Assembly: GCF_026343115.1 (NCBI RefSeq)
Contig: NZ_JAPEMC010000006.1
Span: 1 to 64,000, forward strand
Direction: 5' to 3'
Length of the DNA: 64,000 nucleotides
Source of the DNA: Streptomyces sp. NBC_00102
Lineage (GTDB): Bacteria; Actinomycetota; Actinomycetes; Streptomycetales; Streptomycetaceae
This document shows positions 7,223-38,792 of the stretch, in pieces. Position 1 is the stretch's first letter, and every line of letters begins with the position of its first letter. Position numbers and translations under genes: made by a program. The notes under the pieces are model-generated. The model was not told where the DNA came from, made no database searches, and saw only the letters and a list, made by a program, of their open reading frames with translations.

Positions 7223-8134
7223 TCAGCCCTTGACCGCTCCCGAGGTGAGGCCCTTCATGACCTTCTGGTTGAGGAAGAGGTAGATCAGGAGGGTGCCGAA
7301 GACGTTGATGCAGATGGCGGCGAAGAGGGGGCCGTACTGGGTGGCGCCGAAGTCGCCGGTGAAGTTGAGCAGCCCGACCTGGATGGTGCGCAGGTCCTGG
7401 TCGTTGGTGAAGGTGAGGGCTATGAGCAGGTCGTTCCAGATGAAGAAGAACTGCACCAGGCCGACGGTGAGGAGGGCGTTGCGGACCAGGGGGACGCTGA
7501 TGGTCCAGAAGGCGCGCAGTATGCCGGAACCGTCGACGGTGGCCGCCTCGAACAGCTCGCGCGGGACCGTGCGGTAGTAGGTGGCCATCATGAAGACGGT
7601 CAGCGGAAGGCCGGTGCCGGTGTAGGTGAGGATCAGCGGCCACAGCGTGCCGGACAGGCCGGTCTGGAAGTACACGGTGAACAGGGGCAGCAGGATCATC
7701 TGCGGCGGGATCATCATGCCCGCGAGGAAGACGAGCAGGGTGAGGCTGCGGCCCTTCCAGACCATGATCTGGAGGGCGAAGCCGGCGGCGGTGCCCAGCA
7801 GCAGCATCAGGGCGAGGGCGGGGACGACGGCGAGCAGGCTGTTCTGGACGTACAGGCCGATGTGGCCGGTGTTCCACGCTTCGCCGTAGTTGCCCCACTC
7901 CCAGGAAGTGGGCAGGCTCCAGGTGGAGTTGTTCAGGTAGTCGTCGTTGGACTTCAGCGAGGTGAGGAACATCCATATCAGCGGATAGACCTCGACGACC
8001 AGCAGAAGTGCGACGACGATCTTGACCCACAGGCGGCTCCCCCGACGGCCGGTCCGGGGCCGTCGGGCCCGGTCGGGGGTGCGGGCGGACGTTCTCGCGG
8101 GGGTCGTCTTCGGGTGTGTGTCGATGGTGGCCAT
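7223..8134 (-). CDS. Carbohydrate ABC transporter permease, MalG/LacG type
   Basis: Predicted 303-residue membrane permease. After a basic N-terminus rich in Arg, Thr and Pro come about six membrane helices. The cytoplasmic EAA loop that contacts the ATPase reads FEAATVDGSGILRAFWTISV. The usual C-terminal Gly-rich tail (VMKGLTSGAVKG) confirms the MalG-type subunit. The ATG at 8134 has GGAGGG about 10 bases upstream, inside the end of the preceding permease gene. Only 5 bases separate the two permease genes, so they are co-translated partners. No transport ATPase is encoded nearby; Streptomyces sugar importers often share a distant MsiK-type ATPase. Confidence 0.92.
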   Translation of the reverse strand: MATIDTHPKTTPARTSARTPDRARRPRTGRRGSRLWVKIVVALLLVVEVYPLIWMFLTSLKSNDDYLNNSTWSLPTSWEWGNYGEAWNTGHIGLYVQNSLLAVVPALALMLLLGTAAGFALQIMVWKGRSLTLLVFLAGMMIPPQMILLPLFTVYFQTGLSGTLWPLILTYTGTGLPLTVFMMATYYRTVPRELFEAATVDGSGILRAFWTISVPLVRNALLTVGLVQFFFIWNDLLIALTFTNDQDLRTIQVGLLNFTGDFGATQYGPLFAAICINVFGTLLIYLFLNQKVMKGLTSGAVKG

Positions 8135-8139
8135 GGGTC

Positions 8140-9024
8140 TCAGCCCTCCGTGAGGTCGCGGCGCGAGACGCGGTAGACGACCAGGCTCACCAGCAGGCTC
8201 ACGACGGTCAGCAGCAGGGCGATGGTGCTGCCGTAGCCGTAGTCGCTGTAGGTGAACGACGTCTGGAACATGTACAGGGTCAGCGGGGTGGTGCCGTTGC
8301 CCGGGCCGCCGTTGGTGAGGGCGACGATCGAGTCGAAGGCTTTGAGCGTTCCGTTGATGCTGAAGATCAGCGAGGACATCAGGACCGGCAGGGACAGCGG
8401 AAGCACGATGTGGCGCACGAGCCTGAGTCCGGTCGCCCCGTCGAGGCGGGCTGATTCGAGGACTTCGTCGGGGATGTCGACCAGGCCGGCGAAGAGCAGC
8501 ACGGCGTAGAAGCCCATGGACCGCCAGATGTCCATGGCGACCAGGACCCAGAAGGCGCTGCCCGAGCTGCCGAAGAAGTCGATCGAGTCGATGCCGACCG
8601 CGTTGAGCAGCGAGTTGACCGGGCCGGTCTGGGGCGCGACCTGGAAGAACTTCTGGAACAGCAGGCCGACGGCGACGGTGGGCAGGACGACGGGGAAGAA
8701 GACCAGGGTGCGGATGAGCGCCGAGGCCCGCCTGAGGAAAAACACGTAGAGCAGGGCCAGGAGATAGCCGGCGACGACTTGACCGGCCGTGACGACCACG
8801 GCGTATTTCAAGGTGAACCAGAGCGCGTCCCGCACCGCCGGATCGTCGAAGAGGCGCGAGAAGTTGGCGACACCGTTGCCGGTGAAGCCGTCGATGGTGT
8901 TGCCCTTGGTGAAGGAGTAGCCGAGCGACCACACCATGGGGACGAGCATGATCAGCGAGTAGACGAGGAGAGCGGGACCGAGCAGGAGCGCGATCGCCCT
9001 GCGGTCACCGAGTACGCGGTGCAT
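8140..9024 (-). CDS. Carbohydrate ABC transporter permease, MalF/UgpA type
   Basis: Predicted 294-residue inner-membrane permease with six hydrophobic helices starting at AIALLLGPALLVYSL and an EAA loop LESARLDGATGLRLVRHIVL. It pairs with the downstream MalG-type permease to form the channel for the lipoprotein encoded at 9146-10462. The start is uncertain: the ATG at 9024 gives a compact N-terminus, while a GTG at 9108 adds 28 Pro/Arg-rich residues. Neither has a strong Shine-Dalgarno, and 9108 would lie inside the intercistronic hairpin, so I prefer 9024. Confidence 0.9.
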   Translation of the reverse strand: MHRVLGDRRAIALLLGPALLVYSLIMLVPMVWSLGYSFTKGNTIDGFTGNGVANFSRLFDDPAVRDALWFTLKYAVVVTAGQVVAGYLLALLYVFFLRRASALIRTLVFFPVVLPTVAVGLLFQKFFQVAPQTGPVNSLLNAVGIDSIDFFGSSGSAFWVLVAMDIWRSMGFYAVLLFAGLVDIPDEVLESARLDGATGLRLVRHIVLPLSLPVLMSSLIFSINGTLKAFDSIVALTNGGPGNGTTPLTLYMFQTSFTYSDYGYGSTIALLLTVVSLLVSLVVYRVSRRDLTEG

Positions 9025-9089
9025 GGATGGTGTCCGTCTCGTTTCCGTTGGCGGGGCCTGCGGCGGTGCGGGGCGGCTGGGCCGCCGGG

Positions 9090-9141
9090 CCCGGGGCGGC
9101 TCGCGCACGATCGTGCGAGAAGGCGGGCGGGCCGCCCCGGG
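9090..9141 (-). promoter_or_regulatory. Large intercistronic stem-loop after the binding-protein gene
   Basis: An 11-bp perfect outer stem (9090-9100 with 9131-9141) encloses a 30-base loop that itself holds the 14-base palindrome CGCACGATCGTGCG. It begins only five bases after the binding-protein stop. Hairpins in this position in sugar transporter operons commonly stabilise the binding-protein mRNA or partly terminate, so the lipoprotein is made in excess over the permeases. That role is inferred here. Confidence 0.6.
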
Positions 9142-14004: not shown

Positions 14005-14137
14005 GGCGGTTTTCCTCGCTGTCCGGCGACGACCTGCGGCAATTTGTCAGACGGATGCCGACCATCCACAGAATCGATTTCCGTGATCACTGGTGGCGGG
14101 TCCAGATTAGTGCCACCGCAATCAGGAGGACATGTTC

Positions 14138-15133
14138 GTGAAACCTGAAGCCTCGTCCGCCCTCTTCGCCGGGCCCTTCGCCCTGGCCACACTCTCCGCC
14201 CCCGAGGGGGCGCCCTTCCCCGCTCTCGTCACACCCGACGCGCAGGCGATCGACCTGCGGTCCGCCCTGGGCAACGCCGAGTTGACCGTGCGGGCCGTCC
14301 TGGAGGACTGGGACGCGGTGGAGCCACGGCTCGCCGCGCTGGCCTCCGACGACGGTCCACACCGCCGGGCGCTGGCGGAATTCCGGGTACACGCGCCGGT
14401 CGAGCCGCGCCAGGTCTTCCAGTCCGGGGCCAACTACCGCCAACACGTCATCGATCTGCACGTCGCCCACCGGGCGCCGGGTGACGAGCGGCCGGAGGCG
14501 GAACGGCGCGCCGAGGCGGCGGAGATCATGGACCGGCGGGCAGCCGAGGATCTGCCGTACGTCTTCATCGGTCTGCCGAGCGCGATCACCGGACCGTACG
14601 ACGACGTCGTACTACCGGCCTGGGCCGAGAAGCCCGACTGGGAGCTGGAGCTGACCGCGGTGATCGGCCGCCCCGCCTACCGGGTGTCCGTGGAGGAGGC
14701 CCTGGACCACGTTGCCGGGTACACCATCGCCAACGACCTGACCGACCGGGCGACCGTATTCCGCCGGGACATGCCACAGATAGGCACGGACTGGCTGCGC
14801 AGCAAGAACGCCCCCGGCTTCACCCCGCTCGGCCCCTGGATCGTCCCCGCCACCTCGGTCGCCGACACCGACGACCTGCGCCTCGTCCTGAAGCTCAACG
14901 GCGAGACCATGCAGGACGAGTCCACCAAGGACATGATCTTCGACGTCGCACGCATGGTGTCCTACGCCTCCCAGTCGGCCCGCCTCCTGCCGGGCGACCT
15001 GGTGCTCACCGGCTCCCCCGCCGGCAACGGCATGCACTGGGGCCGACTGCTGCGCGACGGCGACGTCATGGACGGCTCCATCACCGGACTGGGTGCTCAA
15101 CGCACCCGCTGTGTGGCGGAGGAAGCCCGGTGA
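14138..15133 (+). CDS. Fumarylacetoacetate hydrolase (FAH) family protein, first gene of the aromatic cluster
   Basis: Predicted 331-residue FAH-superfamily enzyme, the family that hydrolyses or decarboxylates acylpyruvates after ring cleavage. The metal-binding core includes WELELTAVIGRPAYRVSVEE, the middle holds GYTIANDLTDRA, and the end LLPGDLVLTGSPAGNGMHWG. An extended segment around residues 115-150 resembles larger hydrolase/isomerase members. Two starts compete: ATG at 14132 is only two bases from AGGAGG, while the GTG at 14138 has ideal 8-base spacing, so I use 14138. The stop overlaps the next start in GTGA. One of three FAH paralogues in the cluster; the exact reaction is unknown. 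Confidence 0.9.
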   Translation: MKPEASSALFAGPFALATLSAPEGAPFPALVTPDAQAIDLRSALGNAELTVRAVLEDWDAVEPRLAALASDDGPHRRALAEFRVHAPVEPRQVFQSGANYRQHVIDLHVAHRAPGDERPEAERRAEAAEIMDRRAAEDLPYVFIGLPSAITGPYDDVVLPAWAEKPDWELELTAVIGRPAYRVSVEEALDHVAGYTIANDLTDRATVFRRDMPQIGTDWLRSKNAPGFTPLGPWIVPATSVADTDDLRLVLKLNGETMQDESTKDMIFDVARMVSYASQSARLLPGDLVLTGSPAGNGMHWGRLLRDGDVMDGSITGLGAQRTRCVAEEAR

Positions 15134-16092
15134 CCCCCGACCGCACCGACCCCGAGGGCTCGATCGCGCGGGCCGCGAAAGCGTGCTCCAACTGGAACCG
15201 CTGGGGCGAGAACGACGTACTGGGCACCCTCAACTTCCTCGACGAAGCGAAGCGCCGCGAGGGCGCCGCGCTGGTCCGGCGGGGCGTCAGCTTCTCCCTC
15301 TCCCAGCGCTTCGACATCGACGGCCCGCAGAAGGGCTGGCGCCGGCGCACCAACCCGGTCCACACCATGCTGGACACCGGCACCGACGCGGCCCTCGGCA
15401 ACCAGGGCCTGCCGCACGGCATCGGCGGCGCCGACGACGTGATCGCGATGCCGCTGCAGTGCTCCACGCAGTGGGACGGACTCGGGCACATCTTCGACCA
15501 CGGCAAGGCGTGGAACGGACGCCCGGCCGAGCAGGTCGTCACCTCCGACGGTGACCTGGTCACCGGCATCGAGCACATGGCCCCCTACGTCGCCGGGCGC
15601 GGGGTGCTCCTCGACGTCGGCCGGGTCGTCGGCGAGGACGGTGAGCTGCCCGACGGATTCGCGATCACCGAGGAGCACCTGGCGGCGACGGCCCAGGCGC
15701 ACGGCGTGACCGTGGAACGCGGAGACATCGTGCTGGTACGCACCGGGCAGCTGAGCCGAGTACGCCGCGACGGCTGGGGCGAGTACGCCGGAGGGCCCGC
15801 ACCCGGCCTGTCGTTCACCACGGCCGGCTGGCTGCACCGCACCGAGATCGCCGCGATCGCCACCGACACCTGGGGCTTCGAGGTCCGTCCGAACGAGTTC
15901 GAGCACGCCTTCCAGCCGCTGCACCAGGTCGCCATCCCGAACATCGGCCTGCTCATCGGCGAGATGTGGGACCTCGACGCTCTCGCCGAGGACTGTGCGG
16001 GCGACGGCGCGTACGCCTTCTGGCTCACCGCAGCGCCCCTGCCCATCACCGGCGCGGTCGGCTCGCCGGTCAACCCGATAGCCGTCAAGTAG
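15130..16092 (+). CDS. Cyclase-family metal hydrolase (kynurenine formamidase-like fold)
   Basis: Predicted 320-residue cyclase-family protein (PF04199 type), a metal-dependent fold that includes kynurenine formamidases and other hydrolases. The characteristic metal region reads CSTQWDGLGHIFDHGKAWNG at about residues 111-130; further family signatures are GVLLDVGRVVG, GDIVLVRTGQL and the final NPIAVK. It is longer than true formamidases (about 210 residues), matching the larger uncharacterised branch found in aromatic catabolic clusters. The GTG start overlaps the previous stop by four bases. It could hydrolyse an amide, lactone or ring-cleavage product; the substrate cannot be told. Confidence 0.85.
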   Translation: MTPDRTDPEGSIARAAKACSNWNRWGENDVLGTLNFLDEAKRREGAALVRRGVSFSLSQRFDIDGPQKGWRRRTNPVHTMLDTGTDAALGNQGLPHGIGGADDVIAMPLQCSTQWDGLGHIFDHGKAWNGRPAEQVVTSDGDLVTGIEHMAPYVAGRGVLLDVGRVVGEDGELPDGFAITEEHLAATAQAHGVTVERGDIVLVRTGQLSRVRRDGWGEYAGGPAPGLSFTTAGWLHRTEIAAIATDTWGFEVRPNEFEHAFQPLHQVAIPNIGLLIGEMWDLDALAEDCAGDGAYAFWLTAAPLPITGAVGSPVNPIAVK

Positions 16093-16116
16093 CACCGAGG
16101 AACGAAGGAGTTCCCC

Positions 16117-17247
16117 ATGACCCCATCCCGCACGGTCCTCGTGATCGGCGGCGGCGCGGCCGGCAACGCCGTGACGATCCTGCTGCGCCGCGCCGGGTAC
16201 GCCGTGGACCTCGTCGAGGCCAAGGCCGACTGGAACGCGACCGCCGGCTCCGGCATCACCCTCCAGGGCAACGCCCTGCGCGTCCTGCGCGAACTGGGCG
16301 TCTGGAAGCAGGTGGAGGCGTCCGGTTTCGGCTTCGGCTCGGTCGGCATCACCGCACCCGACGGCACGGTCCTGCACACCCAGGACGACCTGCGCACCGG
16401 CGGCGACGACCTGCCCGCAACCGTGGGCATGCAGCGCCCCCGGCTGCAGCGGATCCTCATCGACGCGGTGCGCGCCAGTGGCGCGACCGTGCGGCTCGGC
16501 ACCACGGCCGAGATCCTGGACCAGGACGCACGCGGCGTCTCGGTACGGCTCTCCGACGGCTCCGAGCACCGCTACGACCTGGTGATCGCAGCCGACGGCC
16601 TCGGTTCCGCCACCCGCGCCGCCATCGGCATCCCCGCCCGACCGGAACCCACCGGCATGGCCATCTGGCGCGTCGCCGCCCCGCGCCCGGCCGGCGTCAC
16701 CCGTACCGACCTCGCCTACGGCGGGCCGGCCTACATCGCCGGCTACTGCCCCACCAGCGACACGACGCTGTACGCGTACGTGGTGGAGGCCAACCGCGAC
16801 CGCGCCGGGATACCGCCCGAGTCGTACGCGGACGAGATGCGCCGCCTGACCCGGCACTACGGCGGGTTCTGGCCGGAGATCACCGAGCACGTCACGGATC
16901 CGGCGAAGGTCAACTACACCTGGTTCGACCGCATGCTGGTCGAGGGGTCCTGGCACCGCGGCCGGGTCGTCCTGGTCGGCGACGCCGCGCACTGCTGCCC
17001 GCCCACCCTCGCCCAGGGCGCCGCCCTCTCGCTGGAGGACGCGTGGGTGCTCGCCCAGATGCTGACCGGGGCCGACGACTGGGACGACTCATTGTTCCAG
17101 TCGTACTACGAGCGGCGGATCGTCCGCGTCCGCCCGGTCGTGGAGGCGTCCGTCCGCATCGGGCAGTGGCAGCTCGACGGTGTGCACGACGCCGACGTGC
17201 CCGGTCTGATGGCCCGCACCATGACCATGCTCCGGGAACTGCCGTGA
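16117..17247 (+). CDS. FAD-dependent aromatic monooxygenase (PHBH fold)
   Basis: Predicted 376-residue single-component flavoprotein hydroxylase. The N-terminal Rossmann motif is VLVIGGGAAGNAV, the middle DG motif lies in DLVIAADGLGSATRAAIG, and the FAD-ribityl GD motif is RVVLVGDAAHCCPPTLAQGA. It should hydroxylate an aromatic ring, probably to make the diol or triol substrate of the extradiol dioxygenase two genes downstream. The ATG at 16117 has AAGGAG six bases upstream. It overlaps the next gene by GTGA. It differs clearly from the second flavin hydroxylase at 22533, so the cluster carries two distinct hydroxylation steps. Confidence 0.9.
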   Translation: MTPSRTVLVIGGGAAGNAVTILLRRAGYAVDLVEAKADWNATAGSGITLQGNALRVLRELGVWKQVEASGFGFGSVGITAPDGTVLHTQDDLRTGGDDLPATVGMQRPRLQRILIDAVRASGATVRLGTTAEILDQDARGVSVRLSDGSEHRYDLVIAADGLGSATRAAIGIPARPEPTGMAIWRVAAPRPAGVTRTDLAYGGPAYIAGYCPTSDTTLYAYVVEANRDRAGIPPESYADEMRRLTRHYGGFWPEITEHVTDPAKVNYTWFDRMLVEGSWHRGRVVLVGDAAHCCPPTLAQGAALSLEDAWVLAQMLTGADDWDDSLFQSYYERRIVRVRPVVEASVRIGQWQLDGVHDADVPGLMARTMTMLRELP

Positions 17248-18263
17248 CCGCGCCGCAGGTTCAGCAGGCCACCCCCACGGTCGACGTACACGCCCACGTC
17301 CTGCTGCCTGAGATCGAGGCACTGGTGGAGGGGCGGCCGGGGCTGGCCGGGGCACGGGCGCTGGACGCCCGCCGCAACGGCCCCGCGGCCCTCGCCGTCA
17401 GCGGTCCCATGATCCGCGAGCGCTTCCCCCGCCTGACCGACGTCACCGTACGGCTGGCGGCGATGGACGCGCAGGGTGTCGACGTCCAGCTGGTCAGCCC
17501 TTCCCCCTCCCACTACCACTACTGGGCGGACGAGGAGACGGCCGGGGAGGTGTACCGGCTGGCCAACGAGGCCACCGCGAAGCACTGTTCGGCCGCGCCG
17601 GACCGGTTGCGCGGTCTGGGCCTCGTACCGCTCCAGCACCCGGAGCGCACCGTCGACGCCCTCGACCACGCTCTCGCGCAGGGCCTGCTCGGCGTCGAGA
17701 TCTCCAGCCACGCGCCCGGCCGCGAACTCTCCGACCCGGCCTACGAACCCTTCTGGACCCGGGCCGAGGAGACGGGCGCGATCCTCTTCCTGCACCCCTT
17801 CGGCTGCACCCTCGACGAGCGCCTCGACCAGTGGTACCTCTCCAACACGGTCGGCCAGCCCACCGAGAACGCCGTCGCACTCTCGCACCTGATCTTCTCC
17901 GGGGTACTCGACCGGCACCCCGGGCTGAAGCTGGTCGCGGCCCACGGCGGCGGCTACCTGCCCACCCACATCGGCCGCTCCGACCACGCCTGGTCCGCCC
18001 GGTCCGACGCGGGAGCCCGCTGCGCCCACCCGCCCAGCACCTACCTGAAGCGGCTGTACTTCGACTCCCTCGTCCACGACCCCCATGTACTGCGGGAACT
18101 GGTCCGTGTCGCCGGGGCCGACCGGGTCCTGCTCGGCTCGGACTTCCCCTTCGACATGGGATCCGAGGACCCGGTGGGCGCCCTGCGCGCCGCCGCCCTG
18201 CCCGAGGCCGACTTCCACGCGATCCGCGGCCGCAACGCGGCCTTCCTCCTCCGGACGGACTGA
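17244..18263 (+). CDS. Amidohydrolase-family decarboxylase/hydrolase (ACMSD-like)
   Basis: Predicted 339-residue amidohydrolase of the group containing 2-amino-3-carboxymuconate-semialdehyde decarboxylase and gamma-resorcylate decarboxylase. Metal and catalytic residues appear in order: HxH in VDVHAHVLL (residues 16 and 18), His in LFLHPFGC, His in LVAAHGGGYLP, and Asp in LLGSDFPFDMGSEDP. Such enzymes remove a carboxylate from an aromatic acid or a ring-cleavage product. The GTG at 17244 overlaps the preceding stop, so it is translated with the monooxygenase. Decarboxylation next to an extradiol dioxygenase suggests an acid-bearing substrate, but the order of steps is inference. Confidence 0.9.
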   Translation: MTAPQVQQATPTVDVHAHVLLPEIEALVEGRPGLAGARALDARRNGPAALAVSGPMIRERFPRLTDVTVRLAAMDAQGVDVQLVSPSPSHYHYWADEETAGEVYRLANEATAKHCSAAPDRLRGLGLVPLQHPERTVDALDHALAQGLLGVEISSHAPGRELSDPAYEPFWTRAEETGAILFLHPFGCTLDERLDQWYLSNTVGQPTENAVALSHLIFSGVLDRHPGLKLVAAHGGGYLPTHIGRSDHAWSARSDAGARCAHPPSTYLKRLYFDSLVHDPHVLRELVRVAGADRVLLGSDFPFDMGSEDPVGALRAAALPEADFHAIRGRNAAFLLRTD

Positions 18264-18267
18264 CACC

Positions 18268-19200
18268 ATGCGCCTGCTCACCCACCTGAGGCACGTCGAC
18301 CTCGCCGTGCCCGACTACGACAAGCAGCTCGACTTCTACGCGGGCGTCTGGGGACTGACCAAGGTCGCCGAGGATTCCGGCATCTCCTTCCTCGCCGCCG
18401 AGGGCTCCCCCGAGCAGTACGTCGTGCGGCTGCGCAAGGCCGACGAGAAGCGACTCGACCTCGTCTCCTACGGCGCCGCGTCCGCAGCCGACGTGGACAC
18501 CCTGGCGGAGCGACTCATAGCCGGAGACGTGCAGTTGATCTCCCGTCCGGGCAGGGTCGACACCCCGGGCGGCGGATACGGCTTCCGCTTCTTCGACGTC
18601 GACGGCCGCACCATCGAGGTGTCCGCCGACGTCGCGGTGCGGCGCCACCGGAAGATCGAGGAGAAGGAGGCCATCCCGGTCAAGCTCTCGCACGTCGTGC
18701 TCAACTCGCCGGACCTGAACCGCACCCGCGAATGGTACGAGCGCCACCTCGGCTTCGCCCTCTCCGACACCCTCAGCTCCCCGCACATGGGCGAGGTCAT
18801 GCACTTCATGCGGATCAGCAACCAGCACCACTCCATGGCCATCGCCCAGGGCCCGCACACCGCCCTGCACCACGTCTCCTTCGAGATGCGCGGCATCGAC
18901 GAGTACATGCGCGGCTCCGGCCGCGTCATGCGAGCAGGTTTCAAGAAGGTCTGGGGCCCCGGCCGGCACCTGGCCGGCGACAACACCTTCACCTACTTCC
19001 TCGACCCGCACGGCAACACCGTCGAGTACACCACCGAGCTGGAGAACCTCGACGAAGACACCTGGCACCCCCACGTCTACGACTTCTCGCAGCCCGAAGT
19101 CACCGACCAGTGGGGCACCGCCAACGCCATGAACGAGATCGTCGCCAAGGAGTCCTTCAACGACCCCGACCGCGGCGTCTTCGTCGCTCCCCCGGTCTGA
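18268..19200 (+). CDS. Two-domain VOC extradiol ring-cleavage dioxygenase
   Basis: Predicted 310-residue type I extradiol dioxygenase made of two vicinal-oxygen-chelate domains (about 1-120 and 135-300). The C-terminal domain holds the metal ligands: His142 in KLSHVVLNSPD, His201 or 202 in ALHHVSFEM, and Glu253 in NTVEYTTELE, spaced as in catechol 2,3-dioxygenases. It should open a catechol-type ring next to the diol. The partners (flavin hydroxylase, FAH hydrolase) resemble trihydroxy-aromatic cleavage routes such as the trihydroxytoluene pathway, but the real substrate is unknown. The ATG is four bases after the previous stop. A 93-base gap follows. Confidence 0.9.
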   Translation: MRLLTHLRHVDLAVPDYDKQLDFYAGVWGLTKVAEDSGISFLAAEGSPEQYVVRLRKADEKRLDLVSYGAASAADVDTLAERLIAGDVQLISRPGRVDTPGGGYGFRFFDVDGRTIEVSADVAVRRHRKIEEKEAIPVKLSHVVLNSPDLNRTREWYERHLGFALSDTLSSPHMGEVMHFMRISNQHHSMAIAQGPHTALHHVSFEMRGIDEYMRGSGRVMRAGFKKVWGPGRHLAGDNTFTYFLDPHGNTVEYTTELENLDEDTWHPHVYDFSQPEVTDQWGTANAMNEIVAKESFNDPDRGVFVAPPV

Positions 19201-19293
19201 TCCCTTCCGCCGAGTCCGGGGGGCGCGGGCCACGGCCCACGCCCCCCGAGGCGCACCCCTACCCGCCCGACCACACTCCGCCGGAGCCGCACC

Positions 19294-20265
19294 ATGCGTT
19301 TCGCCACGTACGAACATCAGGAGCACCGCCGGGTGGCAGTCGTGGAAGAGGACGGCACCCTCTTCCCCCTGCCCGGAGTCACCTCGCTCACCGCACTGAT
19401 CCAGGAGACCTCCGGCCTCCCCGCGCTGCTCGACGCCGGATCGACGGCTCTCGACGGGCCGGCCGGCCCGCACGTCTCCCAGGTCCGTCCGCTTCCCCCG
19501 CTCCAGCCCGCTTCGGTACGGGACTTCGTGACCTTCGAGGAGCACGTGGAGGGGGTGCGCCGGTCCGTGGAAGGCGTCGGCGGCGTCCCCGAACAGTGGT
19601 ACGCGGCCCCGACCTTCTACTTCACCAACCCCCACGCGATCCACGGTCACCTCGACGGCATCCCGGTACCGCCCGGCTCGTCCGTCCTGGACTTCGAGCT
19701 GGAGGTCGGAGCCGTCATCGGCCGCGAGGGCCGTGACCTGACACCACGTCAAGCCCGTGACCACATCATCGGCTACACCGTCTTCAACGACTGGTCCGCA
19801 CGCGACCTCCAGAGCGCGGAGATGAAGATCGGCCTCGGCCCCTGCAAGGGCAAGGACACCGCCACCACCCTGGGCCCGTACCTCGTCACCGCCGACGAAC
19901 TGGAGCCCCACCGCGACGCGGACGGCTTCCTCCGGCTGGCCATGACCGCGGAGATCAACGGCCGGGTGGTCGGCGAGGACCTGCTGTCCCACATGAGCTG
20001 GACCTTCGAGGAGATGACCGCCTACGCCTCCCGCGGCACCCGGGTCGTCCCGGGCGACGTCCTCGGCTCCGGTACCTGTGGCAACGGCGGCTGCCTCGCC
20101 GAACTCTGGGGCCGGCGCGGCGAACAGTCCCCGCCGCCGCTGAAGCCCGGTGACACCGTCACGCTCACCGTCGAGGGCCTCGGCGTCCTCACCAACACCG
20201 TCGTCGCCGGCGCCGCCCCCGTCCCTCTCCCCACCGGGCGCCGCCGCCTCCGGGAGCGGCCGTGA
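19294..20265 (+). CDS. FAH-family hydrolase (fumarylacetoacetase-like), second copy
   Basis: Predicted 323-residue FAH-superfamily protein. It starts MRFATYEHQEHRRVAVVEED and carries the acid-rich metal site in SVLDFELEVGAVIGREGRD, the conserved GYTVFNDWSARDLQ, GPCKGKDTATTLGPYLVT, and SGTCGNGGCLAELWGRRG near the end. The GTCGxGCxxE-like region is that of true fumarylacetoacetase-like hydrolases rather than of the compact fumarylpyruvate hydrolases. It follows the extradiol dioxygenase and probably hydrolyses its product. GGAG lies 8 bases before the ATG. The stop overlaps the GTG of the SDR gene. Confidence 0.9.
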   Translation: MRFATYEHQEHRRVAVVEEDGTLFPLPGVTSLTALIQETSGLPALLDAGSTALDGPAGPHVSQVRPLPPLQPASVRDFVTFEEHVEGVRRSVEGVGGVPEQWYAAPTFYFTNPHAIHGHLDGIPVPPGSSVLDFELEVGAVIGREGRDLTPRQARDHIIGYTVFNDWSARDLQSAEMKIGLGPCKGKDTATTLGPYLVTADELEPHRDADGFLRLAMTAEINGRVVGEDLLSHMSWTFEEMTAYASRGTRVVPGDVLGSGTCGNGGCLAELWGRRGEQSPPPLKPGDTVTLTVEGLGVLTNTVVAGAAPVPLPTGRRRLRERP

Positions 20266-21015
20266 CCGACCCGCACTCCAAGAGGCTGCTCGGAAAGGTC
20301 GTCGTCGTCACCGGCGCGGCCGGCGGACAGGGCGCCGCCGAGGCCCGGCTGCTCACCCTGGAAGGGGGCCCGTGTCATCCCCACCGACGTGACCGGCGCA
20401 CCCGGCTGCCGACGCCTCGACGTCACCAGCGAAACGGCCTGGGCCGAACTCGCGGACGAACTGCGGGAGTCGTACGGGCAGGTGCACGGCCTGGTCAACA
20501 ACGCCGGCATCACCTGGCGGGCCCGACTCGGCGACGTACGCTCGGCGGACATGGCCCGCGTCCACGCGGTCAACGTCACCGGTCCGCTCCTCGGCATGCA
20601 GCATGTGGCGCCGCTCATGCGCCCCGGCTCCTCCATCGTCAACGTCGGATCGTCCGCTGCCCTCACCGCTCACTACCCAGTCGCCTACACCACCAGCAAG
20701 TGGGCACTGCGCGGCCTGTCGAAAACAGCTGCCCTGGAGCTCGGACCGCGCGGCATCCGCGTCAACACGATCCATCCCGGTTACATCGAGACCGGGATGA
20801 CCGCCTCGGCCGCACCCGGGTTCCGCGAGGTCAACGTCCGCGAGACACCACTGGGCCGCACGGGCACCGTCGGCGAAGTCGCGCCGCTGGTGGCGTTCCT
20901 GCTGTCCGACGACGCGTCGTTCATCACCGGTGCGGAGATTCCGGTGGACGGCGGCATGACCGCGCACGGCGGCGTCAAGTCCGTCTCCGACGCACTGCGC
21001 GAGGCCCCCAACTGA
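20262..21015 (+). pseudogene. SDR-family oxidoreductase interrupted by a one-base frameshift
   Basis: The gene starts at a GTG overlapping the previous stop and encodes a normal SDR N-terminus, LLGKVVVVTGAAGGQGAAEA, for about 35 residues. The frame is then lost at a run of five G (20364-20368). The rest of the enzyme continues in another frame to 21015: NNAGI, the catalytic Ser in VNVGSSAAL, the YTTSK motif and the C-terminal GAEIPVDGGM. Deleting one G restores a 250-residue SDR, the usual family length, and a sensible junction (LEGARVIPTDV). So this is either a recent inactivating insertion or a homopolymer sequencing error. As written, no full-length product is made. It would oxidise or reduce a pathway alcohol or ketone. 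Confidence 0.85.
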
Positions 21016-21031
21016 AAGGCACCACGCACCC

Positions 21032-21787
21032 ATGAACAAGGTCCGCGCCGACGCCGCCGAAGCGGTCGCCGACATCCCCGACGGCGCCTCGCTCGCCGTC
21101 GGCGGCTTCGGCCTCAGCGGTGTACCCGAAACCCTGATACGCGCCCTGCACGACCGGGGCACGACCGGTCTGAACGTCGTCTCCAACAACTGCGGTGTCG
21201 ACGGCCGCGGTCTGGGCATCCTGCTCTCCGCCGGCCGCATCGCCCGCGTCACCGGCTCCTACGTCGGCGAGAACAAGGAGTTCGCCCGGCAGTACCTCGG
21301 CGGTGAACTGGAGGTCGAACTCACCCCGCAGGGCACCCTCGCGGAACGGCTGCGCGCGGGCGGTGCGGGCATCCCCGCCTTCTACACCCCGGCCGGCGTC
21401 GGCACCCAGGTGGCGAACGGCGGCCTGCCCTGGCGGTACGCGGCCGACGGCACGGTGGCCGTGGCCTCCCCGCCCAAGGAGACCCGCGACTTCGCCGGCC
21501 GCGCCCACGTCCTGGAGCACGGCATCACCACCGACTTCGCCCTGGTACGGGCCTGGCGCGGCGACCACCACGGCAACCTGCTCTTCCGCCGTGCCGCCGC
21601 CAACTTCAATCCCCTCGCCGCCATGGCCGGCCGCGTCACCGTCGCCGAGGTCGAGGAACTCGTCGAACCGGGCGCACTCCACCCCGAGGACATCCACCTG
21701 CCCGGCATCTACGTCCAGCGGATCGTGGCCCTCACCGCCGAGCAGGCCGCCGACAAGCAGATCGAGAAAAGGACGGTACGCGTCTGA
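21032..21787 (+). CDS. scoA: 3-oxoacid CoA-transferase subunit A (SCOT type)
   Basis: Predicted 251-residue alpha subunit of a succinyl-CoA:3-oxoacid CoA-transferase. It begins with [22 protein letters not shown], the glycine-rich opening of the family, and carries [20 protein letters not shown] and [19 protein letters not shown]. It transfers CoA from succinyl-CoA to an oxoacid such as acetoacetate or 3-oxoadipate so that thiolysis can follow. Its stop and the beta-subunit start share one base (TGATG), so the two subunits are made together. In this cluster it would activate an oxoacid from ring degradation. Confidence 0.92.
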
Positions 21788-22437
21788 TGGCCTGGACCCG
21801 CGACCAGATGGCCGCCCGCGCGGCCGCCGAACTCACCGACGGCTCCTACGTCAACCTCGGCATCGGCCTGCCCACTCTCGTCCCTGGCCACCTCCCGCCC
21901 GGGGTCCACGTCGTCCTGCACTCCGAAAACGGCATCCTCGGCACCGGCCCCTACCCCGTCGAGAGCGAGGTCGACCCCGACCTGGTCAACGCCGGCAAGG
22001 AGACCGTCACCGTGCTGCCAGGAGCCTCCTTCTTCGACTCCGCACTCTCCTTCGGCATGATCCGCGGCGGCCACATCGACACCGCGGTACTGGGCGCCAT
22101 GCAGGTGTCCGAACGCGGCGACCTCGCCAACTGGATGATCCCCGGAAAGATGGTCAAGGGCATGGGCGGCGCGATGGACCTCGTCCACGGGGCCCGCCGC
22201 GTCATCGTCCTCATGGAACACACCGCCAAGGACGGCACTCCCAAGATCCTCGGCGAGTGCACGCTCCCCCTCACCGGCGAGCGGTGCGTCCACCGGATCA
22301 TCACCGACCTCGGAGTCCTCGACGTCACCCCCGACGGGCTCGCCCTGGTCGAGACCGCCCCAGGCGTCACCGTCGAAGACATCACCGCCCGGACCGACGC
22401 CGCCGTGCGCGTGGACGGCGTCTCCGCGGCCTGCTGA
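21787..22437 (+). CDS. scoB: 3-oxoacid CoA-transferase subunit B
   Basis: Predicted 216-residue beta subunit. The catalytic Glu that forms the CoA thioester lies in [13 protein letters not shown] near residue 50; family motifs [28 protein letters not shown] and [17 protein letters not shown] follow. The ATG overlaps the subunit A stop by one base. SCOT subunits act in ketone-body use or in 3-oxoadipate metabolism; the sequence alone does not separate these, so the symbol denotes the family. Confidence 0.92.
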
Positions 22438-22532
22438 GCCCTGCGGCGCCGCTGCCCCTCCAGCCCCCCGGCAACGCACTGCCTGGGAACCGCTCGCACG
22501 CCAGAACACCCCTGCTCACTCACGGAGGCCAG

Positions 22533-23747
22533 ATGCCCGTCACCTCTTCCCCACTCCACATCGCCGTAGTCGGCGGCGGCATCGGCGGACTGGCGGCCGC
22601 ACTGGCGACCGCCCGCGCCGGCCACCGCGTGACGCTCGTGGAACAAGCCAACCGCTTCGGCGAGATAGGCGCCGGCCTGCAACTCGCCCCGAACGCCTCC
22701 CTCGCCCTCGACGAACTCGGCGTACTCGCCGCCGTACGGCACACCGCCGTGGCACCACCCCGGCTGGTGATGATGGACGCCCTCACCGGACACGAGGTCA
22801 CCGCCCTCGACCTCCACGGCGCGGCCTACACCGACCGCTTCGCGCACCCCTACCTCGTCACCCACCGGACCGACCTGCACGCCGCGTTGCTGACCGCCTG
22901 CCAGGAACATCCAGGCGTCACTCTGCGCACGGGGCACACCGTCACCGAGGCGCAGCAGAACGGCTTCGGCGTCCACCTGACCTTCGCCGAGAACCACGCG
23001 GAACTGACCGCCGACGCGGTGGTCGCGGCCGACGGACTGCACTCCCGCCTGCGCCAGTCGTTGGTGAACGACGGAGAACCGGTCTGTTCGCGGTACGTCG
23101 CCTTCCGCGGCGCCCTCCCCACCGGGAAGATGACCGGCCCGATGTCCCGACACGCCGCCTCGGAAGCGGTGATGGTCTGGGCCGGGCCACGCATGCACCT
23201 GGTGCAGTACCCCGTACGCCGCGGCGAGCTCTACAACCAGGTCGCCGTCTTCGAGAGCGACCACTACACCCCGGACTCCGACGACTGGGGCACCGAAGCC
23301 GAACTCGAGGAACGCTTCGCCGGCACCTGCCGGGCCGTGCGGGACGCCCTGCCCCTCGTCTCACGCGACCGGCGCTGGCCCCTCTACGACCGCGCCCCGA
23401 TCGACACCTGGGTGCACGGCCGCATCGCCCTCCTCGGCGACGCCGCCCACCCCATGCTCCAGTACCTCGCACAGGGCGCGTGCCAGGCACTGGAGGACGC
23501 GGTGGCGCTCGGACAGGCTCTCGGCCAGTGCTCGGACCCCGCTGAAGCCTTCGCCGCGTACGCGGACCGGCGCCGCGAACGGGCGGCCCTCATCCAGACC
23601 GGCGCCCGCCGTTTCGGCGAGATCTGCCACCTGGAAGGCATGGGGGCCACCCTGCGCAACAAGCTCCTCTCGTCACGCGGCCCCGAGGAGTTCGACGACA
23701 TCTCCTGGGTGTGGACCCCCACCCCCGCATCTGCTCCCGCCCTGTGA
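22533..23747 (+). CDS. FAD monooxygenase of 3-hydroxybenzoate 6-hydroxylase/salicylate hydroxylase type
   Basis: Predicted 404-residue flavin hydroxylase. The Rossmann motif is IAVVGGGIGGLAAALA, the DG motif lies in ADAVVAADGLHSRLRQSL, and the GD region RIALLGDAAHPMLQYLAQGACQ is the form common to 3-hydroxybenzoate 6-hydroxylases and salicylate hydroxylases. The next gene is a gentisate dioxygenase, so para-hydroxylation of 3-hydroxybenzoate (or a related acid) to gentisate is the best reading. The ATG at 22533 has GGAGG five bases upstream; the frame open further upstream is the shadow of the CoA-transferase genes. About 95 bases separate it from the CoA transferase. Confidence 0.9.
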   Translation: MPVTSSPLHIAVVGGGIGGLAAALATARAGHRVTLVEQANRFGEIGAGLQLAPNASLALDELGVLAAVRHTAVAPPRLVMMDALTGHEVTALDLHGAAYTDRFAHPYLVTHRTDLHAALLTACQEHPGVTLRTGHTVTEAQQNGFGVHLTFAENHAELTADAVVAADGLHSRLRQSLVNDGEPVCSRYVAFRGALPTGKMTGPMSRHAASEAVMVWAGPRMHLVQYPVRRGELYNQVAVFESDHYTPDSDDWGTEAELEERFAGTCRAVRDALPLVSRDRRWPLYDRAPIDTWVHGRIALLGDAAHPMLQYLAQGACQALEDAVALGQALGQCSDPAEAFAAYADRRRERAALIQTGARRFGEICHLEGMGATLRNKLLSSRGPEEFDDISWVWTPTPASAPAL

Positions 23748-23770
23748 ACGGGCTCGCCGAGGAGGACACC

Positions 23771-24811
23771 GTGACGACCGACGACAACGCCTACAAGGCC
23801 CTGGAGAGCCTGGGAGCCGCCCCGTTGTGGCGCTTCTACGGCAACCTCTTCCCCACACAGCCCAAGAGCCGTGCCGTGCCCTACCGCTGGAGCTGGCAGG
23901 AACTGCGGCCGCATCTGCTGCACTTCTCCGAAACGCTCTCGCTGGACGAGGCGGAACGCAGGGTGCTCATGCTGGTGAACCCCGGCCTGACCGATCCACC
24001 CGCCACCGTCAACACCCTGTACGCGGGACTGCAGATCATCCTGCCCGGCGAGACCGCCCAGGCACACAGGCACACGTCCAACGCCTTCCGCTTCGTCCTG
24101 GAGGGCAGCGGTGCGTGGACGACGGTCGACGGCGAGCGTGTCTTCATGTCGCCGGGCGACCTGCTGCTCACCCCCGGCTGGCACTGGCACGACCACACGC
24201 ACGAGGGCGACGCTCCGATGATCTGGCTCGACGCCCTCGACTACCCCCTCGTCAACGCCCTGGAGGCGGGCTTCTACGAGAAGTACCCGCAGCGCCTCCA
24301 GCCCGTGACCCGCCCGGACGACGCCGGCAGCAGGCAATTCCTGCACGGTCGGCTGAACCCGGTCTGGCTCACCCAGGACGGGCCCAACTCCCCTGTGACC
24401 CGCTATACGTGGGAAGAGACCCGACTCGCTCTGGAGGGGATCTCCGACACCGCGGCAGGCAGCGCCGTCGACGGCATCGTCCTCGAATACACCAACCCGT
24501 GGACGGGCGGCCCCGTCATGCCGACCATCGGCTGCCGCGTCCAGCGGCTGCGACCGGGCTTCCGGGGAGCCGGATACCGGCACACCGCCTCCACCATCTT
24601 CACCGTGGTCCGCGGTGAAGGCACCACGATCGTGGACGGCGAGCGGTTGGAGTGGTCCGAGAACGACACCTTCGCCGTGCCCGGCTGGACGCCCTACCGG
24701 CACCTCAACCACTCCGCCTCCGACGACGCCGTCCTGTTCTCCTACAGCAACGAGCCCGTCCTCCGCTCCCTCGGCCTGTACCGCGCCGAAGACGCCGACC
24801 CCGGCGCCTGA
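23771..24811 (+). CDS. Gentisate 1,2-dioxygenase (bicupin)
   Basis: Predicted 346-residue ring-cleaving dioxygenase converting gentisate and oxygen to maleylpyruvate. Iron ligands fit the family: His99 and His101 in TAQAHRHTSNAF and His140 in GWHWHDHTHEG, a 39-residue spacing. The second cupin (GAGYRHTASTIFTVVRGEG) follows, with the usual WSENDTFAVPGWTPYRHLN. The opening MTTDDNAYKALES and RAVPYRWSWQELRPHL are typical. The GTG at 23771 has GGAGG five bases upstream. A GTG at 23744 overlapping the previous stop would add nine residues but has no better ribosome site. It is placed between the hydroxylase and the FAH hydrolase, as expected for a gentisate pathway. Confidence 0.95.
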   Translation: MTTDDNAYKALESLGAAPLWRFYGNLFPTQPKSRAVPYRWSWQELRPHLLHFSETLSLDEAERRVLMLVNPGLTDPPATVNTLYAGLQIILPGETAQAHRHTSNAFRFVLEGSGAWTTVDGERVFMSPGDLLLTPGWHWHDHTHEGDAPMIWLDALDYPLVNALEAGFYEKYPQRLQPVTRPDDAGSRQFLHGRLNPVWLTQDGPNSPVTRYTWEETRLALEGISDTAAGSAVDGIVLEYTNPWTGGPVMPTIGCRVQRLRPGFRGAGYRHTASTIFTVVRGEGTTIVDGERLEWSENDTFAVPGWTPYRHLNHSASDDAVLFSYSNEPVLRSLGLYRAEDADPGA

Positions 24812-24841
24812 ACGAACCGCACCCCACCCGGACGCCCGTAT

Positions 24842-24875
24842 CCGTATCCCGCAATCCGTATCCCGCAATCCGCAA
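24842..24875 (+). repeat. Short tandem repeat in the gap before the fumarylpyruvate hydrolase gene
   Basis: The 14-base unit CCGTATCCCGCAAT occurs twice in a row (24842-24855, 24856-24869) and is followed by a third partial copy (CCGCAA) that runs into the AAGGAGG ribosome site. Slippage could alter spacing here, but the repeat is outside coding sequence. Confidence 0.85.
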
Positions 24876-24885
24876 GGAGGCCCAG

Positions 24886-25752
24886 ATGCGTCTGGCCCTG
24901 TTCAACGACGGGCGACTCGGAGCCGTCGACGGCGACGACCTCGTCGACGTGACCGAGCGACTCATCGGTACCGGCCCGCCCGGCCCGGCCGGAGCGCTGC
25001 ACCGTCACATCGAGACCACGGCCCGTGAGGGAGCTGCCCCGCTGGACCTCTCCGGCCTCACGCGCGTCCCGTTGGCCGAGGCAGTCATGGAGGCGCCACT
25101 GCCCCGTCCCGGCAAGATCATCGGGGCGCCGGTCAACTATCTGGACCACAAGGCCGAGATGGAGTACACCACCTCCATCGCGGACCTGGGCGTCTTCCTC
25201 AAGGCCAACTCGTCGGTCATCGGGCCGGGCCAGGACGTCCTCCTGCCCTACACCGACAAGCGCACCGACCAGGAAGGCGAGCTGGGCGTCGTCATCGGCC
25301 GCACCGCCACCCACGTCGACGCGGCCGACGCGCTGGACCACGTCTTCGGCTACACCTGCGTACTGGACATCACCGTGCGATCCGGCGAAGACCGTTCCAC
25401 ACGCAAGTCGTTCGACACATTCACACCGATCGGGCCCTGGATCGTCACCGCCGACGAGATACCGGACCCCGACTGCCTCGACCTGCGCTGCGACGTCAGC
25501 GGTGGCACCCGGCAGCGAACGAACACCGCGGATCTGATCTTCGGCGTCCGTGAACTGATCGCCTACACGTCGTCCGTCATGACCCTCCACCCAGGTGACG
25601 TGATCGCGACCGGCACACCGGCCGGCGTGGGGCCGCTCAGCCACAGCGACACGATCGTCCTGGACATCGAACGGGTCGGCCGTCTGGAAGTGGGCGTCGA
25701 CGGGACCCGGGCCGTCCCCTACGAGCGGCGCCCTGGGCATCGGGCGCGCTGA
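24886..25752 (+). CDS. Fumarylpyruvate hydrolase-like FAH-family enzyme
   Basis: Predicted 288-residue compact FAH protein. Core motifs are IIGAPVNYLDHKAEME, the acidic metal site DQEGELGVVIGRTA, GYTCVLDITVRSGEDRSTRKSFDTF and HPGDVIATGTPAGVGPL. In the gentisate pathway such enzymes split fumarylpyruvate, or directly maleylpyruvate, into pyruvate and a C4 diacid. The ATG has AAGGAGG six bases upstream; the earlier open frame is the gentisate dioxygenase shadow. It is the last gene of the aromatic cluster and converges on the oxidoreductase at 25874. No maleylpyruvate isomerase accompanies it. Confidence 0.88.
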   Translation: MRLALFNDGRLGAVDGDDLVDVTERLIGTGPPGPAGALHRHIETTAREGAAPLDLSGLTRVPLAEAVMEAPLPRPGKIIGAPVNYLDHKAEMEYTTSIADLGVFLKANSSVIGPGQDVLLPYTDKRTDQEGELGVVIGRTATHVDAADALDHVFGYTCVLDITVRSGEDRSTRKSFDTFTPIGPWIVTADEIPDPDCLDLRCDVSGGTRQRTNTADLIFGVRELIAYTSSVMTLHPGDVIATGTPAGVGPLSHSDTIVLDIERVGRLEVGVDGTRAVPYERRPGHRAR

Positions 25753-27313: not shown

Positions 27314-27428
27314 GGTCACAGTCTGGCGGGGCGTGTGCCGGAGGGCCACAGGGGCAGGCGGAATAGTGCACTGATGGTCACGGTTGTGCCGGACAGGTCC
27401 GAACCGGCACAGGAAGAGGTAGCAGAGA

Positions 27429-38706: not shown

Positions 38707-38792
38707 GAGCGTCACCTTCTGCGAAACAGCACGACGGAAACATGACCCGGTGTGGGGGGACGCGGGCGGTGCTCGCACGGGTGTGTGGCTGG

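What the first reader, a model, noticed from the sequence alone, without database searches (positions are those of the whole stretch)
14138..25752. Composite aromatic cluster joining a gentisate route to an uncharacterised extradiol module
Twelve co-oriented genes combine two pathways. The downstream three (flavin hydroxylase, gentisate dioxygenase, FAH hydrolase) are a known gentisate route. The upstream genes (cyclase-family enzyme, a different flavin hydroxylase, ACMSD-like decarboxylase, extradiol VOC dioxygenase, two FAH hydrolases, SDR, CoA transferase) form a combination I cannot match to a described pathway. It may degrade a larger aromatic through decarboxylation and extradiol cleavage, and feed a hydroxybenzoate into the gentisate arm.
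Basis: partly seen in the sequence, partly recalled or inferred. Interest (0 to 1): 0.72.

Follow-up and report, generated by a model that had tools for sequence, protein, structure and literature searches.

The report
Soil actinomycete plant-polyphenol breakdown island
A set of neighbouring genes in a soil actinomycete looks like a machine for stripping sugars off plant flavonoid-type molecules and then taking the ring system apart, a job for which I found genes described only in other groups of bacteria.

Summary
In detail: twelve co-oriented genes (14132-25752) behind a divergent LysR gene, except that the SDR gene is frame-broken near 20,365. The upstream genes are a real, old module: LysR / FAH1-cyclase-FMO1-ACMSD-like-VOC-FAH2 in the same order in all 14 stretches of relatives with VOC identity 83-95% (one further decayed copy aside), in part or rearranged in other actinobacterial families. 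It works like the fde/ifc flavonoid routes of proteobacteria and shares a hydroxylase subfamily, but its dioxygenase is only about 30% identical and its cyclase was not found there. The gentisate trio is optional (4 of 16 genomes, own included). Best reading: an fde-like ring A degradation module for plant polyphenol (flavonoid- or xanthone-type) glycosides, releasing pyruvate, acetoacetate and an aromatic acid. Inferred steps: hydroxylation, extradiol cleavage, acylpyruvate hydrolysis (FAH1), decarboxylation, lactone opening, fumarylacetoacetase-type cleavage (FAH2), acetoacetate activation. Substrate class moderately supported; single steps and exact substrate not shown. New variant of a known kind.

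The parts
1587..4064 (-). GH3 glycosidase (beta-glucosidase-like)
   Evidence: PF00933/PF01915; best NCBIfam model BetGlucosiCelf0468 357 bits, cut-off 1300 not reached; kept next to the core in G052, G019, G056, G053
4573..7170 (-). GH78 alpha-L-rhamnosidase, the only PF17389 match found in the own genome
   Evidence: PF17389 413.5 bits; PDB 6gsz alpha-L-rhamnosidase 793 bits; genome count
7223..8143 (-). sugar ABC permease (second)
   Evidence: by position and by homology to relatives (L197 counterpart is PF00528); not itself scanned with Pfam; 5' end uncertain
8140..9108 (-). sugar ABC permease
   Evidence: PF00528
9146..10462 (-). sugar-binding protein of the ABC transporter
   Evidence: PF01547
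10720..11769 (+). LacI regulator 1
   Evidence: PF00356/PF13377
11773..12885 (+). LacI regulator 2
   Evidence: PF00356/PF13377
13087..14004 (-). divergent LysR regulator
   Evidence: PF00126/PF03466; near the core in 38 of 43 core loci
14005..14131 (.). divergent control region with GGAT-N7-ATCC inverted repeat and ATCnATTTCC block
   Evidence: 18 of 30 and 24 of 30 intergenic regions; base shuffles 0.1% for the first
14132..15133 (+). FAH1, acylpyruvate (2,4-diketo acid) hydrolase-like
   Evidence: PF01557; best PDB match 8gsr L-2,4-diketo-3-deoxyrhamnonate hydrolase, 140 bits
15130..16092 (+). cyclase-family hydrolase, proposed lactone hydrolase
   Evidence: PF04199; only PDB match 5ibz, uncharacterised; Q110, Q114, D116, H120 invariant over 44 loci
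16117..17247 (+). FMO1, flavin hydroxylase, NF005313 subfamily
   Evidence: 450.8 bits, cut-off 372; same subfamily as FdeE-like FMOs
17244..18263 (+). ACMSD-like amidohydrolase, proposed decarboxylase
   Evidence: PF04909; PDB ACMSD 177 bits; H16, H18, H184, H234, D300 invariant over 36 loci
18268..19200 (+). two-domain VOC extradiol dioxygenase
   Evidence: PF00903; PDB 3b59 246 bits, 1mpy 61 bits; H142, H202, E253 align with the metal-ligand columns of catechol 2,3-dioxygenase 1mpy (ligand roles recalled) and are invariant over 45 loci
19294..20265 (+). FAH2, fumarylacetoacetase-type hydrolase
   Evidence: NF053535 82.9 and TIGR01266 69.7 bits, both below cut-off; invariant D77 H84 E135 E137 D166 R170 K187 T261 E270; model ties FAH and YisK
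20262..21035 (+). SDR gene, frame-broken near 20,365
21032..21787 (+). 3-oxoacid CoA-transferase subunit A
   Evidence: TIGR02429 228 bits, over cut-off
21787..22437 (+). 3-oxoacid CoA-transferase subunit B
   Evidence: TIGR02428 338 bits, over cut-off
22533..23747 (+). FMO2, 3-hydroxybenzoate 6-hydroxylase-like
   Evidence: NF006021 403.5 bits, cut-off 459 not reached; aligned over its length to PDB 4bjy
23711..24811 (+). gentisate 1,2-dioxygenase-like bicupin (true start may lie downstream)
   Evidence: TIGR02272 361.8 bits, cut-off 442.1 not reached
24886..25752 (+). FAH3, proposed fumarylpyruvate or maleylpyruvate hydrolase
   Evidence: PF01557; best NCBIfam model NF053535, below cut-off; role from its place after the dioxygenase

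Best explanation
The island takes up and consumes a plant polyphenol (flavonoid-like) rhamnoglucoside. Rhamnosidase and glucosidase strip the sugars. FMO1 adds a hydroxyl next to the 7-OH of ring A; VOC opens that ring so that the ring oxygen becomes a lactone ester (4-hydroxy-2-pyrone with an acylpyruvate side chain); FAH1 removes the side chain as pyruvate; the ACMSD-like enzyme decarboxylates the ring carbon; the cyclase-family enzyme opens the lactone to an aroylacetoacetate; FAH2 splits it, as fumarylacetoacetase splits fumarylacetoacetate, into an aromatic acid and acetoacetate; the CoA transferase activates acetoacetate; the SDR would serve C2-C3-saturated (flavanone) substrates. In this island the aromatic acid may go through FMO2, gentisate dioxygenase and FAH3. 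Shown: gene families, conserved ligand positions, conservation, co-occurrence. Inferred: substrate class, every reaction, their order.
For: GH78 within 15 kb of the VOC gene in 5 of 16 core genomes (own included), in two arrangements; two or more by chance 0.4%. Other sugar modules next to the core: pyranose-oxidase-like genes (TIGR02462, below cut-off; the sequence space that holds C-glycoside-3-oxidases) in L050 and L197, LacI plus sugar ABC in L197, ROK plus sugar ABC in L188, GFO/IDH in L050 and L194; a GH3 gene and a sugar ABC beside a related VOC cluster in Rhizobium L064. A glycoside-3-oxidase of soil bacteria was assayed with mangiferin and lies with C-deglycosidase genes (PMC10646112 passages). 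FMO1 shares NF005313 with three FMOs paired with VOCs in proteobacteria, one in FMO-VOC-Rieske order like fdeECD. ifc route: 8-hydroxylation, VOC, then a 2-hydroxy-5-aryl-4-pyranone, which fits cleavage beside the ring oxygen. FAH1 and ACMSD go together: both 33, neither 8, ACMSD alone 2 of 43 loci. FAH2 keeps fumarylacetoacetase-type residues; an acetoacetate-CoA ligase lies two genes after a FAH2-like gene in L052.
Against: VOC is only ~27-36% identical to the fde-type VOCs and passes E<1e-20 in 3 of 80 such loci; FAH1 in 3, ACMSD in 4, FAH2 and the cyclase in 0 of 80 at that threshold. The cyclase has Gln where metal-binding His are expected from kynurenine formamidase-type enzymes (motif recalled). 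FAH2's best NCBIfam and PDB sequence matches are not fumarylacetoacetases, and its model ties YisK with fumarylacetoacetase. GH78 is not near the core in 11 of 16 genomes; in G013 the flanking glycan genes look pectin- or galactoside-type. 3-hydroxybenzoate is not a usual flavonoid B-ring acid. No Herbaspirillum FdeC sequence was among the loci fetched.
Confidence: 0.52

Rival explanations
1. The module degrades a non-flavonoid bicyclic or acylated phenol whose second ring is a 3-hydroxybenzoyl unit, such as a plant xanthone or benzophenone glycoside; the second ring leaves as 3-hydroxybenzoate or gentisate and enters the gentisate arm directly.
For: Explains why the add-on arm is a 3-hydroxybenzoate/gentisate route and why another gentisate set sits by the core in L186. 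The pyranose/C-glycoside-oxidase-like neighbours suit mangiferin-type xanthones (PMC10646112).
Against: A close gentisate dioxygenase is missing in 12 of 16 core genomes. Rhamnosidase points to flavonoid rhamnoglucosides at least as well. No gene in the core separates the two classes.
Confidence: 0.2
2. Two unrelated pathways happen to be neighbours: a generic 3-hydroxybenzoate/gentisate route and a catabolic module for some monocyclic acylphenol or microbial polyketide; the sugar genes serve plant cell-wall rhamnosides.
For: The gentisate trio is optional; the L186 gentisate set has its own aromatic-acid transporter-like gene. Related VOC clusters with MhpA-like hydroxylases show no glycosidase in the annotated stretch in L052 and L065. 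A VOC of this kind lies near polyketide synthase genes in L059.
Against: Island conserved as a unit in G000, G052, G019, G056; sugar unit and core adjacent in a second arrangement in G053; other kinds of sugar module elsewhere.
Confidence: 0.22
3. The module carries out ordinary protocatechuate- or aminophenol-type meta cleavage, with the ACMSD-like enzyme decarboxylating a carboxy-muconate semialdehyde.
For: The ACMSD-like enzyme matches ACMSD best in the PDB and extradiol plus ACMSD-type decarboxylase occurs in such routes (recalled).
Against: No semialdehyde dehydrogenase, tautomerase or aldolase family among the matches of the twelve genes; acetoacetate-type CoA transferase and fumarylacetoacetase-type FAH2 not needed there.
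Confidence: 0.06

Closest known systems
fde naringenin route of Herbaspirillum seropedicae SmR1
   Same: Naringenin-dependent activator FdeR (abstract in listing; that it is LysR-type is recalled), FAD hydroxylase acting on ring A C8, glyoxalase/VOC-type dioxygenase for ring A (passages of PMC11069340 and PMC8552027). FMO1 is in the NCBIfam subfamily of a Massilia FdeE-like FMO.
   Different: No Rieske gene here; VOC only ~27-36% identical to fde-type VOCs; FAH1 and ACMSD in only 3-4 of 80 fde-type loci, this cyclase in none at E<1e-20; sugar and gentisate genes added. The Marin 2013 and 2016 papers are not held, so the full fde gene list was not compared.
ifc isoflavone cluster of Variovorax sp. 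V35
   Same: 8-hydroxylase (IfcA), VOC (IfcB), pyranone intermediate.
   Different: Continues with cupins IfcD1/D2; here FAH, decarboxylase-like and cyclase genes instead.
Sphingomonad FMO-VOC-FAH clusters (S. yanoikuyae pKN1, Novosphingobium EMRT-2)
   Same: FMO (NF005313), VOC 40-46% identical, FAH; EMRT-2 also FAH1-like 46% and ACMSD-like 45%.
   Different: TonB receptors and other hydrolases; function not known to me.
3-hydroxybenzoate/gentisate pathway of actinomycetes
   Same: FMO2, gentisate dioxygenase-like, FAH3.
   Different: No maleylpyruvate isomerase among the matches of the twelve genes; scores below the NCBIfam equivalog cut-offs.

Membership tests
fde/ifc flavonoid A-ring degradation | FAD hydroxylase of the FdeE/IfcA kind | tested here: met
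   NF005313 over cut-off for FMO1 and for FMOs of L065 (FMO-VOC-Rieske order), L062, L061; L059's FMO is below it. About 32-40% identity to FMOs of fde-type loci, 69 of 80 loci at E<1e-20. FdeE and IfcA themselves were not compared.
fde/ifc flavonoid A-ring degradation | VOC dioxygenase of the FdeC/IfcB subfamily | tested here: not met
   ~27-36% identity to fde-type VOCs, 3 of 80 loci at E<1e-20; same superfamily, another subfamily. Hence not filed as an fde member. FdeC itself was not compared.
fde/ifc flavonoid A-ring degradation | Rieske protein beside hydroxylase and dioxygenase (FdeD) | tested here: not met
   no Rieske family among the matches of the twelve genes
fde/ifc flavonoid A-ring degradation | turnover of flavonoids | not testable with these tools
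   needs enzyme or growth assays
extradiol VOC dioxygenase | two His and one Glu metal ligands | tested here: met
   alignment to 1mpy (ligand roles recalled); H142, H202, E253 invariant over 45 loci
ACMSD-type decarboxylase | HxH, two further His and Asp metal/catalytic residues | tested here: met
   H16, H18, H184, H234, D300 invariant over 36 loci; PDB match; residue roles recalled
ACMSD proper | substrate 2-amino-3-carboxymuconate semialdehyde | not testable with these tools
   no 3-hydroxyanthranilate dioxygenase among the matches of the twelve genes
fumarylacetoacetase (FAH2) | catalytic and metal residues of FAH | tested here: met
   invariant D77 H84 E135 E137 D166 R170 K187 T261 E270 in 33 sequences, alignment to 5ti1 over the core; FAH residue roles and spacing recalled
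fumarylacetoacetase (FAH2) | NCBIfam TIGR01266 cut-off | tested here: not met
   69.7 against 375.3 bits, third behind NF053535 (82.9) and TIGR02303 (78.7), all below cut-off: a relative, not an equivalog
fumarylacetoacetase (FAH2) | fold closer to FAH than to other FAH-family enzymes | tested here: inconclusive
kynurenine formamidase / isatin hydrolase | HxxxHxD metal motif | tested here: not met
   QxxxQxD (Q110, Q114, D116) invariant over 44 loci; motif recalled
3-hydroxybenzoate 6-hydroxylase | NF006021 cut-off | tested here: not met
   403.5 against 459 bits; best of the models
3-hydroxybenzoate 6-hydroxylase | active-site His, Tyr and Gln of the R. jostii enzyme | tested here: met
   the GPR-His-Tyr and His-Pro-Gln-Tyr-Leu-Ala stretches of FMO2 align with those of 4bjy with these residues kept; residue roles and the enzyme's true name recalled (the PDB calls it probable salicylate monooxygenase)
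gentisate 1,2-dioxygenase | TIGR02272 cut-off | tested here: not met
   361.8 against 442.1 bits; still the best model

The most novel reading that the evidence does not exclude
Actinomycetes carry a complete aerobic route, gene by gene in one island, from plant polyphenol rhamnoglucosides to central metabolites, with two steps I have not found described: a cyclase-family enzyme (glutamines in place of the usual metal-site histidines) that opens a 4-hydroxy-2-pyrone, and a fumarylacetoacetase relative that cuts aroylacetoacetate into an aromatic acid and acetoacetate. The same core is coupled in different lineages to O-glycoside, C-glycoside and gentisate add-ons.
Probability: 0.35. Interest if true: 0.75.

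Novelty: new variant of a known kind. Interest (0 to 1): 0.56.

Why it matters
Flavonoids and related polyphenols are common aromatics that plants put into soil (general knowledge). Genes for their aerobic ring cleavage are described in proteobacteria (fde, ifc). In the searches made here (open-licence full texts only, mostly seen as listings) I saw no such cluster described for actinomycetes. A close VOC occurs in 29 of 394 genomes drawn from the class (own included), and 26 of these 29 have the cyclase beside it. If the reading is right, a widespread module gets a function and each step becomes testable.

Tried and rejected
4-Hydroxypyridine-type catabolism (kpi cluster): its ring opener is an amidohydrolase with an alpha/beta hydrolase, and its table as seen lists no VOC or cyclase (passages of PMC7356986); rejected.

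FAH2 as a housekeeping Streptomyces enzyme: the protein search lists many 83-89% relatives, so I checked genomes: orthologues at E<=1e-90 in 15 of 61 genomes of the genus, and all 15 also carry the module's VOC; rejected.

The released acid as 4-hydroxybenzoate, with PobA as the alternative sink: matches at E<=1e-50 in 8 of 10 genomes, none over the family's cut-off; no match in G000 and G056, which have the gentisate arm, but matches in G052 and G019, which have it too; Fisher p 0.13; inconclusive.

Promoter and terminator scan: nothing above shuffles. Herbaspirillum fde locus: not among the 80 loci kept of 396; the Massilia FMO-VOC-Rieske genes stood in for it. A search with the S. yanoikuyae VOC listed only sphingomonads among the rows that name an organism, apart from one unnamed bacterium (120 of 2683 shown). 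Xanthone-degradation genes: nothing useful in the listing. PMC12724307 and PMC10807413 hold none of the cluster terms asked for. A synteny query for the neighbouring flavoprotein at 25874-27481 was cut in the wrong frame in my scripts, so its absence elsewhere says nothing and is not used.

Rows dropped: the co-occurrence count took 55 loci with VOC identity of 55% or more; 43 had the cyclase and were counted, 12 had not (L039-L042, L044-L046, L052, L063, L195, L196, G281d); five of these show none of the other genes at the thresholds used (L039, L042, L044, L045, L052). L050 (VOC 24%) was left out, L197 and G314 fell below the VOC threshold, and the other plasmid loci (L053-L062, L064-L068) were not entered.


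Full report
What is there. The window lies at G000:C6:1-64000 of an 8.6 Mb genome; its nearest named relatives by the VOC protein are Streptomyces. Neighbours overlap or lie within 95 bases, which fits one transcript. The SDR gene is frame-broken near 20,365; three relatives looked at have it whole. On the - strand upstream lie a GH3 glycosidase, a GH78 alpha-L-rhamnosidase and a sugar ABC transporter, and on the + strand two LacI regulators. The rhamnosidase matches PDB 6gsz with 793 bits (from memory a fungal enzyme that acts on flavonoid glycosides).

The module is real. I fetched 23 stretches from relatives whose VOC is 59% or more identical. All 14 with 83-95% identity (L024-L037, from 13 genomes) have LysR / FAH1-cyclase-FMO1-ACMSD-VOC-FAH2 in this order; L046 (second locus of G026) is a decayed partial copy; L038 has a reduced set, L043 a rearranged one, and L039-L042, L044 and L045 have a VOC with few or none of the others. 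A draw of 394 genomes of the class gave 29 with a VOC at E<=1e-90, own included; 26 of these 29 have the cyclase beside it. Of 30 loci fetched from that draw, 15 have the full set in order (in L179 the LysR gene lies elsewhere), 7 a reduced set without FAH1 and ACMSD, 4 a rearranged set, 4 no cyclase. Over 43 loci with VOC (55% or more) and cyclase, window included, FMO1 is present in 41, FAH2 in 42, LysR in 38, ACMSD in 35, FAH1 in 33, SDR in 26, CoA transferase A and B in 14 and 17 (dropped rows are told under Tried and rejected). FAH1 and ACMSD are both present in 33, both absent in 8, ACMSD alone in 2; related genomes are not independent, but the reduced set spans eight genera (handles), so the two genes behave as a pair.

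Control region. The 127 bases between LysR and FAH1 hold an inverted repeat GGAT-N7-ATCC, found in 18 of 30 such regions, and a block ATCnATTTCC in 24 of 30; base-shuffled regions hold the first in 0.1%. This fits a LysR operator.

The gentisate arm is an add-on. A gentisate dioxygenase of 84-90% identity lies beside the core in G052, G019 and G056; of the other 12 core genomes searched, two have a 38-40% relative elsewhere, two a weak fragment and eight nothing. In L186, from another family, a separate set (FMO2-like 48%, FAH3-like 63%, dioxygenase 38%) with an aromatic-acid transporter-like gene adjoins a reduced core. FMO2 keeps the active-site context of the R. jostii 3-hydroxybenzoate 6-hydroxylase structure (roles recalled) but misses the NCBIfam cut-off.

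The sugar side. GH78 occurs 1 to 5 times per genome in the 16 core genomes searched, and once in the own genome, in this window. It lies within 15 kb of the VOC gene in 5 of 16: upstream in G000, G052, G019 and G056, downstream in G053. Counting two independent arrangements, chance of two or more is 0.4%. Elsewhere other sugar modules adjoin the core: pyranose-oxidase-like genes (below cut-off) in L050 and L197, a LacI gene and sugar ABC genes in L197, ROK and sugar ABC genes in L188, GFO/IDH oxidoreductases in L050 and L194. L050 has the core but a different VOC (24%). Pyranose oxidases and C-glycoside-3-oxidases share one sequence space (abstracts in the listing), and one such soil enzyme, assayed with mangiferin, lies with C-deglycosidase genes (PMC10646112 passages). 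In Rhizobium L064 a GH3 gene and a sugar ABC lie beside a related amidohydrolase-VOC-hydroxylase-FAH set. Against: 11 of 16 genomes have no GH78 near the core, and in G013 the flanking glycan genes are of a pectin or galactoside type.

Parallel with flavonoid routes. In fde and ifc a flavin enzyme hydroxylates C8 of ring A and a VOC enzyme acts on the resulting catechol (PMC11069340 passages and sections 16 and 17; PMC8552027 and PMC11303751 passages). FMO1 belongs to NF005313, as do a Massilia FMO in FMO-VOC-Rieske order and two sphingomonad FMOs paired with VOCs. In 80 named loci found with the Massilia VOC, an FMO1 relative is present in 69, FAH1 in 3 and ACMSD in 4 (42-51% identity), this cyclase and FAH2 in none, and the window VOC matches in 3, all at E<1e-20. 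Weaker FAH2 relatives with a GS/TGTxSN...E motif are common in these loci (38 of the 40 ORFs printed). Pseudomonas thivervalensis, one of the species hit, is reported to hold genes like the naringenin genes (PMC8515041 passage on strain SC5). So the two systems work alike; the window is not a member of fde.

Which substrate. Rhamnoglucosides of flavones or flavanones fit the sugar genes; a 3-hydroxybenzoate/gentisate sink fits xanthones or 3'-hydroxylated benzophenones better. The sequence does not decide.

Noticed in passing
window 20262-21035: SDR gene frame-broken while three relatives are whole; the rest of the operon stays in frame.
   Followed up: partly
L186:6413-7582: 389-aa protein without a Pfam match at E<1e-8 lies between SDR and cyclase in a core that lacks FAH1 and ACMSD; a gap of similar size lies there in L193 and L194; it may replace those two steps.
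   Followed up: partly
L064, L065, L068: Recurring proteobacterial set of amidohydrolase, VOC, FAH and MhpA-like hydroxylase (Rhizobium, Massilia, Novosphingobium), another extradiol route that I cannot name; in L064 beside GH3 and sugar ABC genes.
   Followed up: no
L203, L206, L208, L210 (G281): One genome carries three complete cores and two further VOC genes; G049 carries two cores, one with a stop inside FAH2, and G026 a second, partial core copy with a stop in VOC.
   Followed up: no
L059:4610-9927: FMO and VOC of this kind next to two styrene/indole-monooxygenase-type genes and near polyketide synthase genes in Streptomyces angustmyceticus; possible biosynthetic use.
   Followed up: no
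window 25874-27481: Dihydrolipoyl dehydrogenase/MerA-like flavoprotein, convergent with the operon; its conservation was not properly tested.
   Followed up: no
window 37453-38778 and 53000-55174: A second sugar-binding protein gene and a PAS-GGDEF-EAL protein; no link to the finding seen.
   Followed up: no
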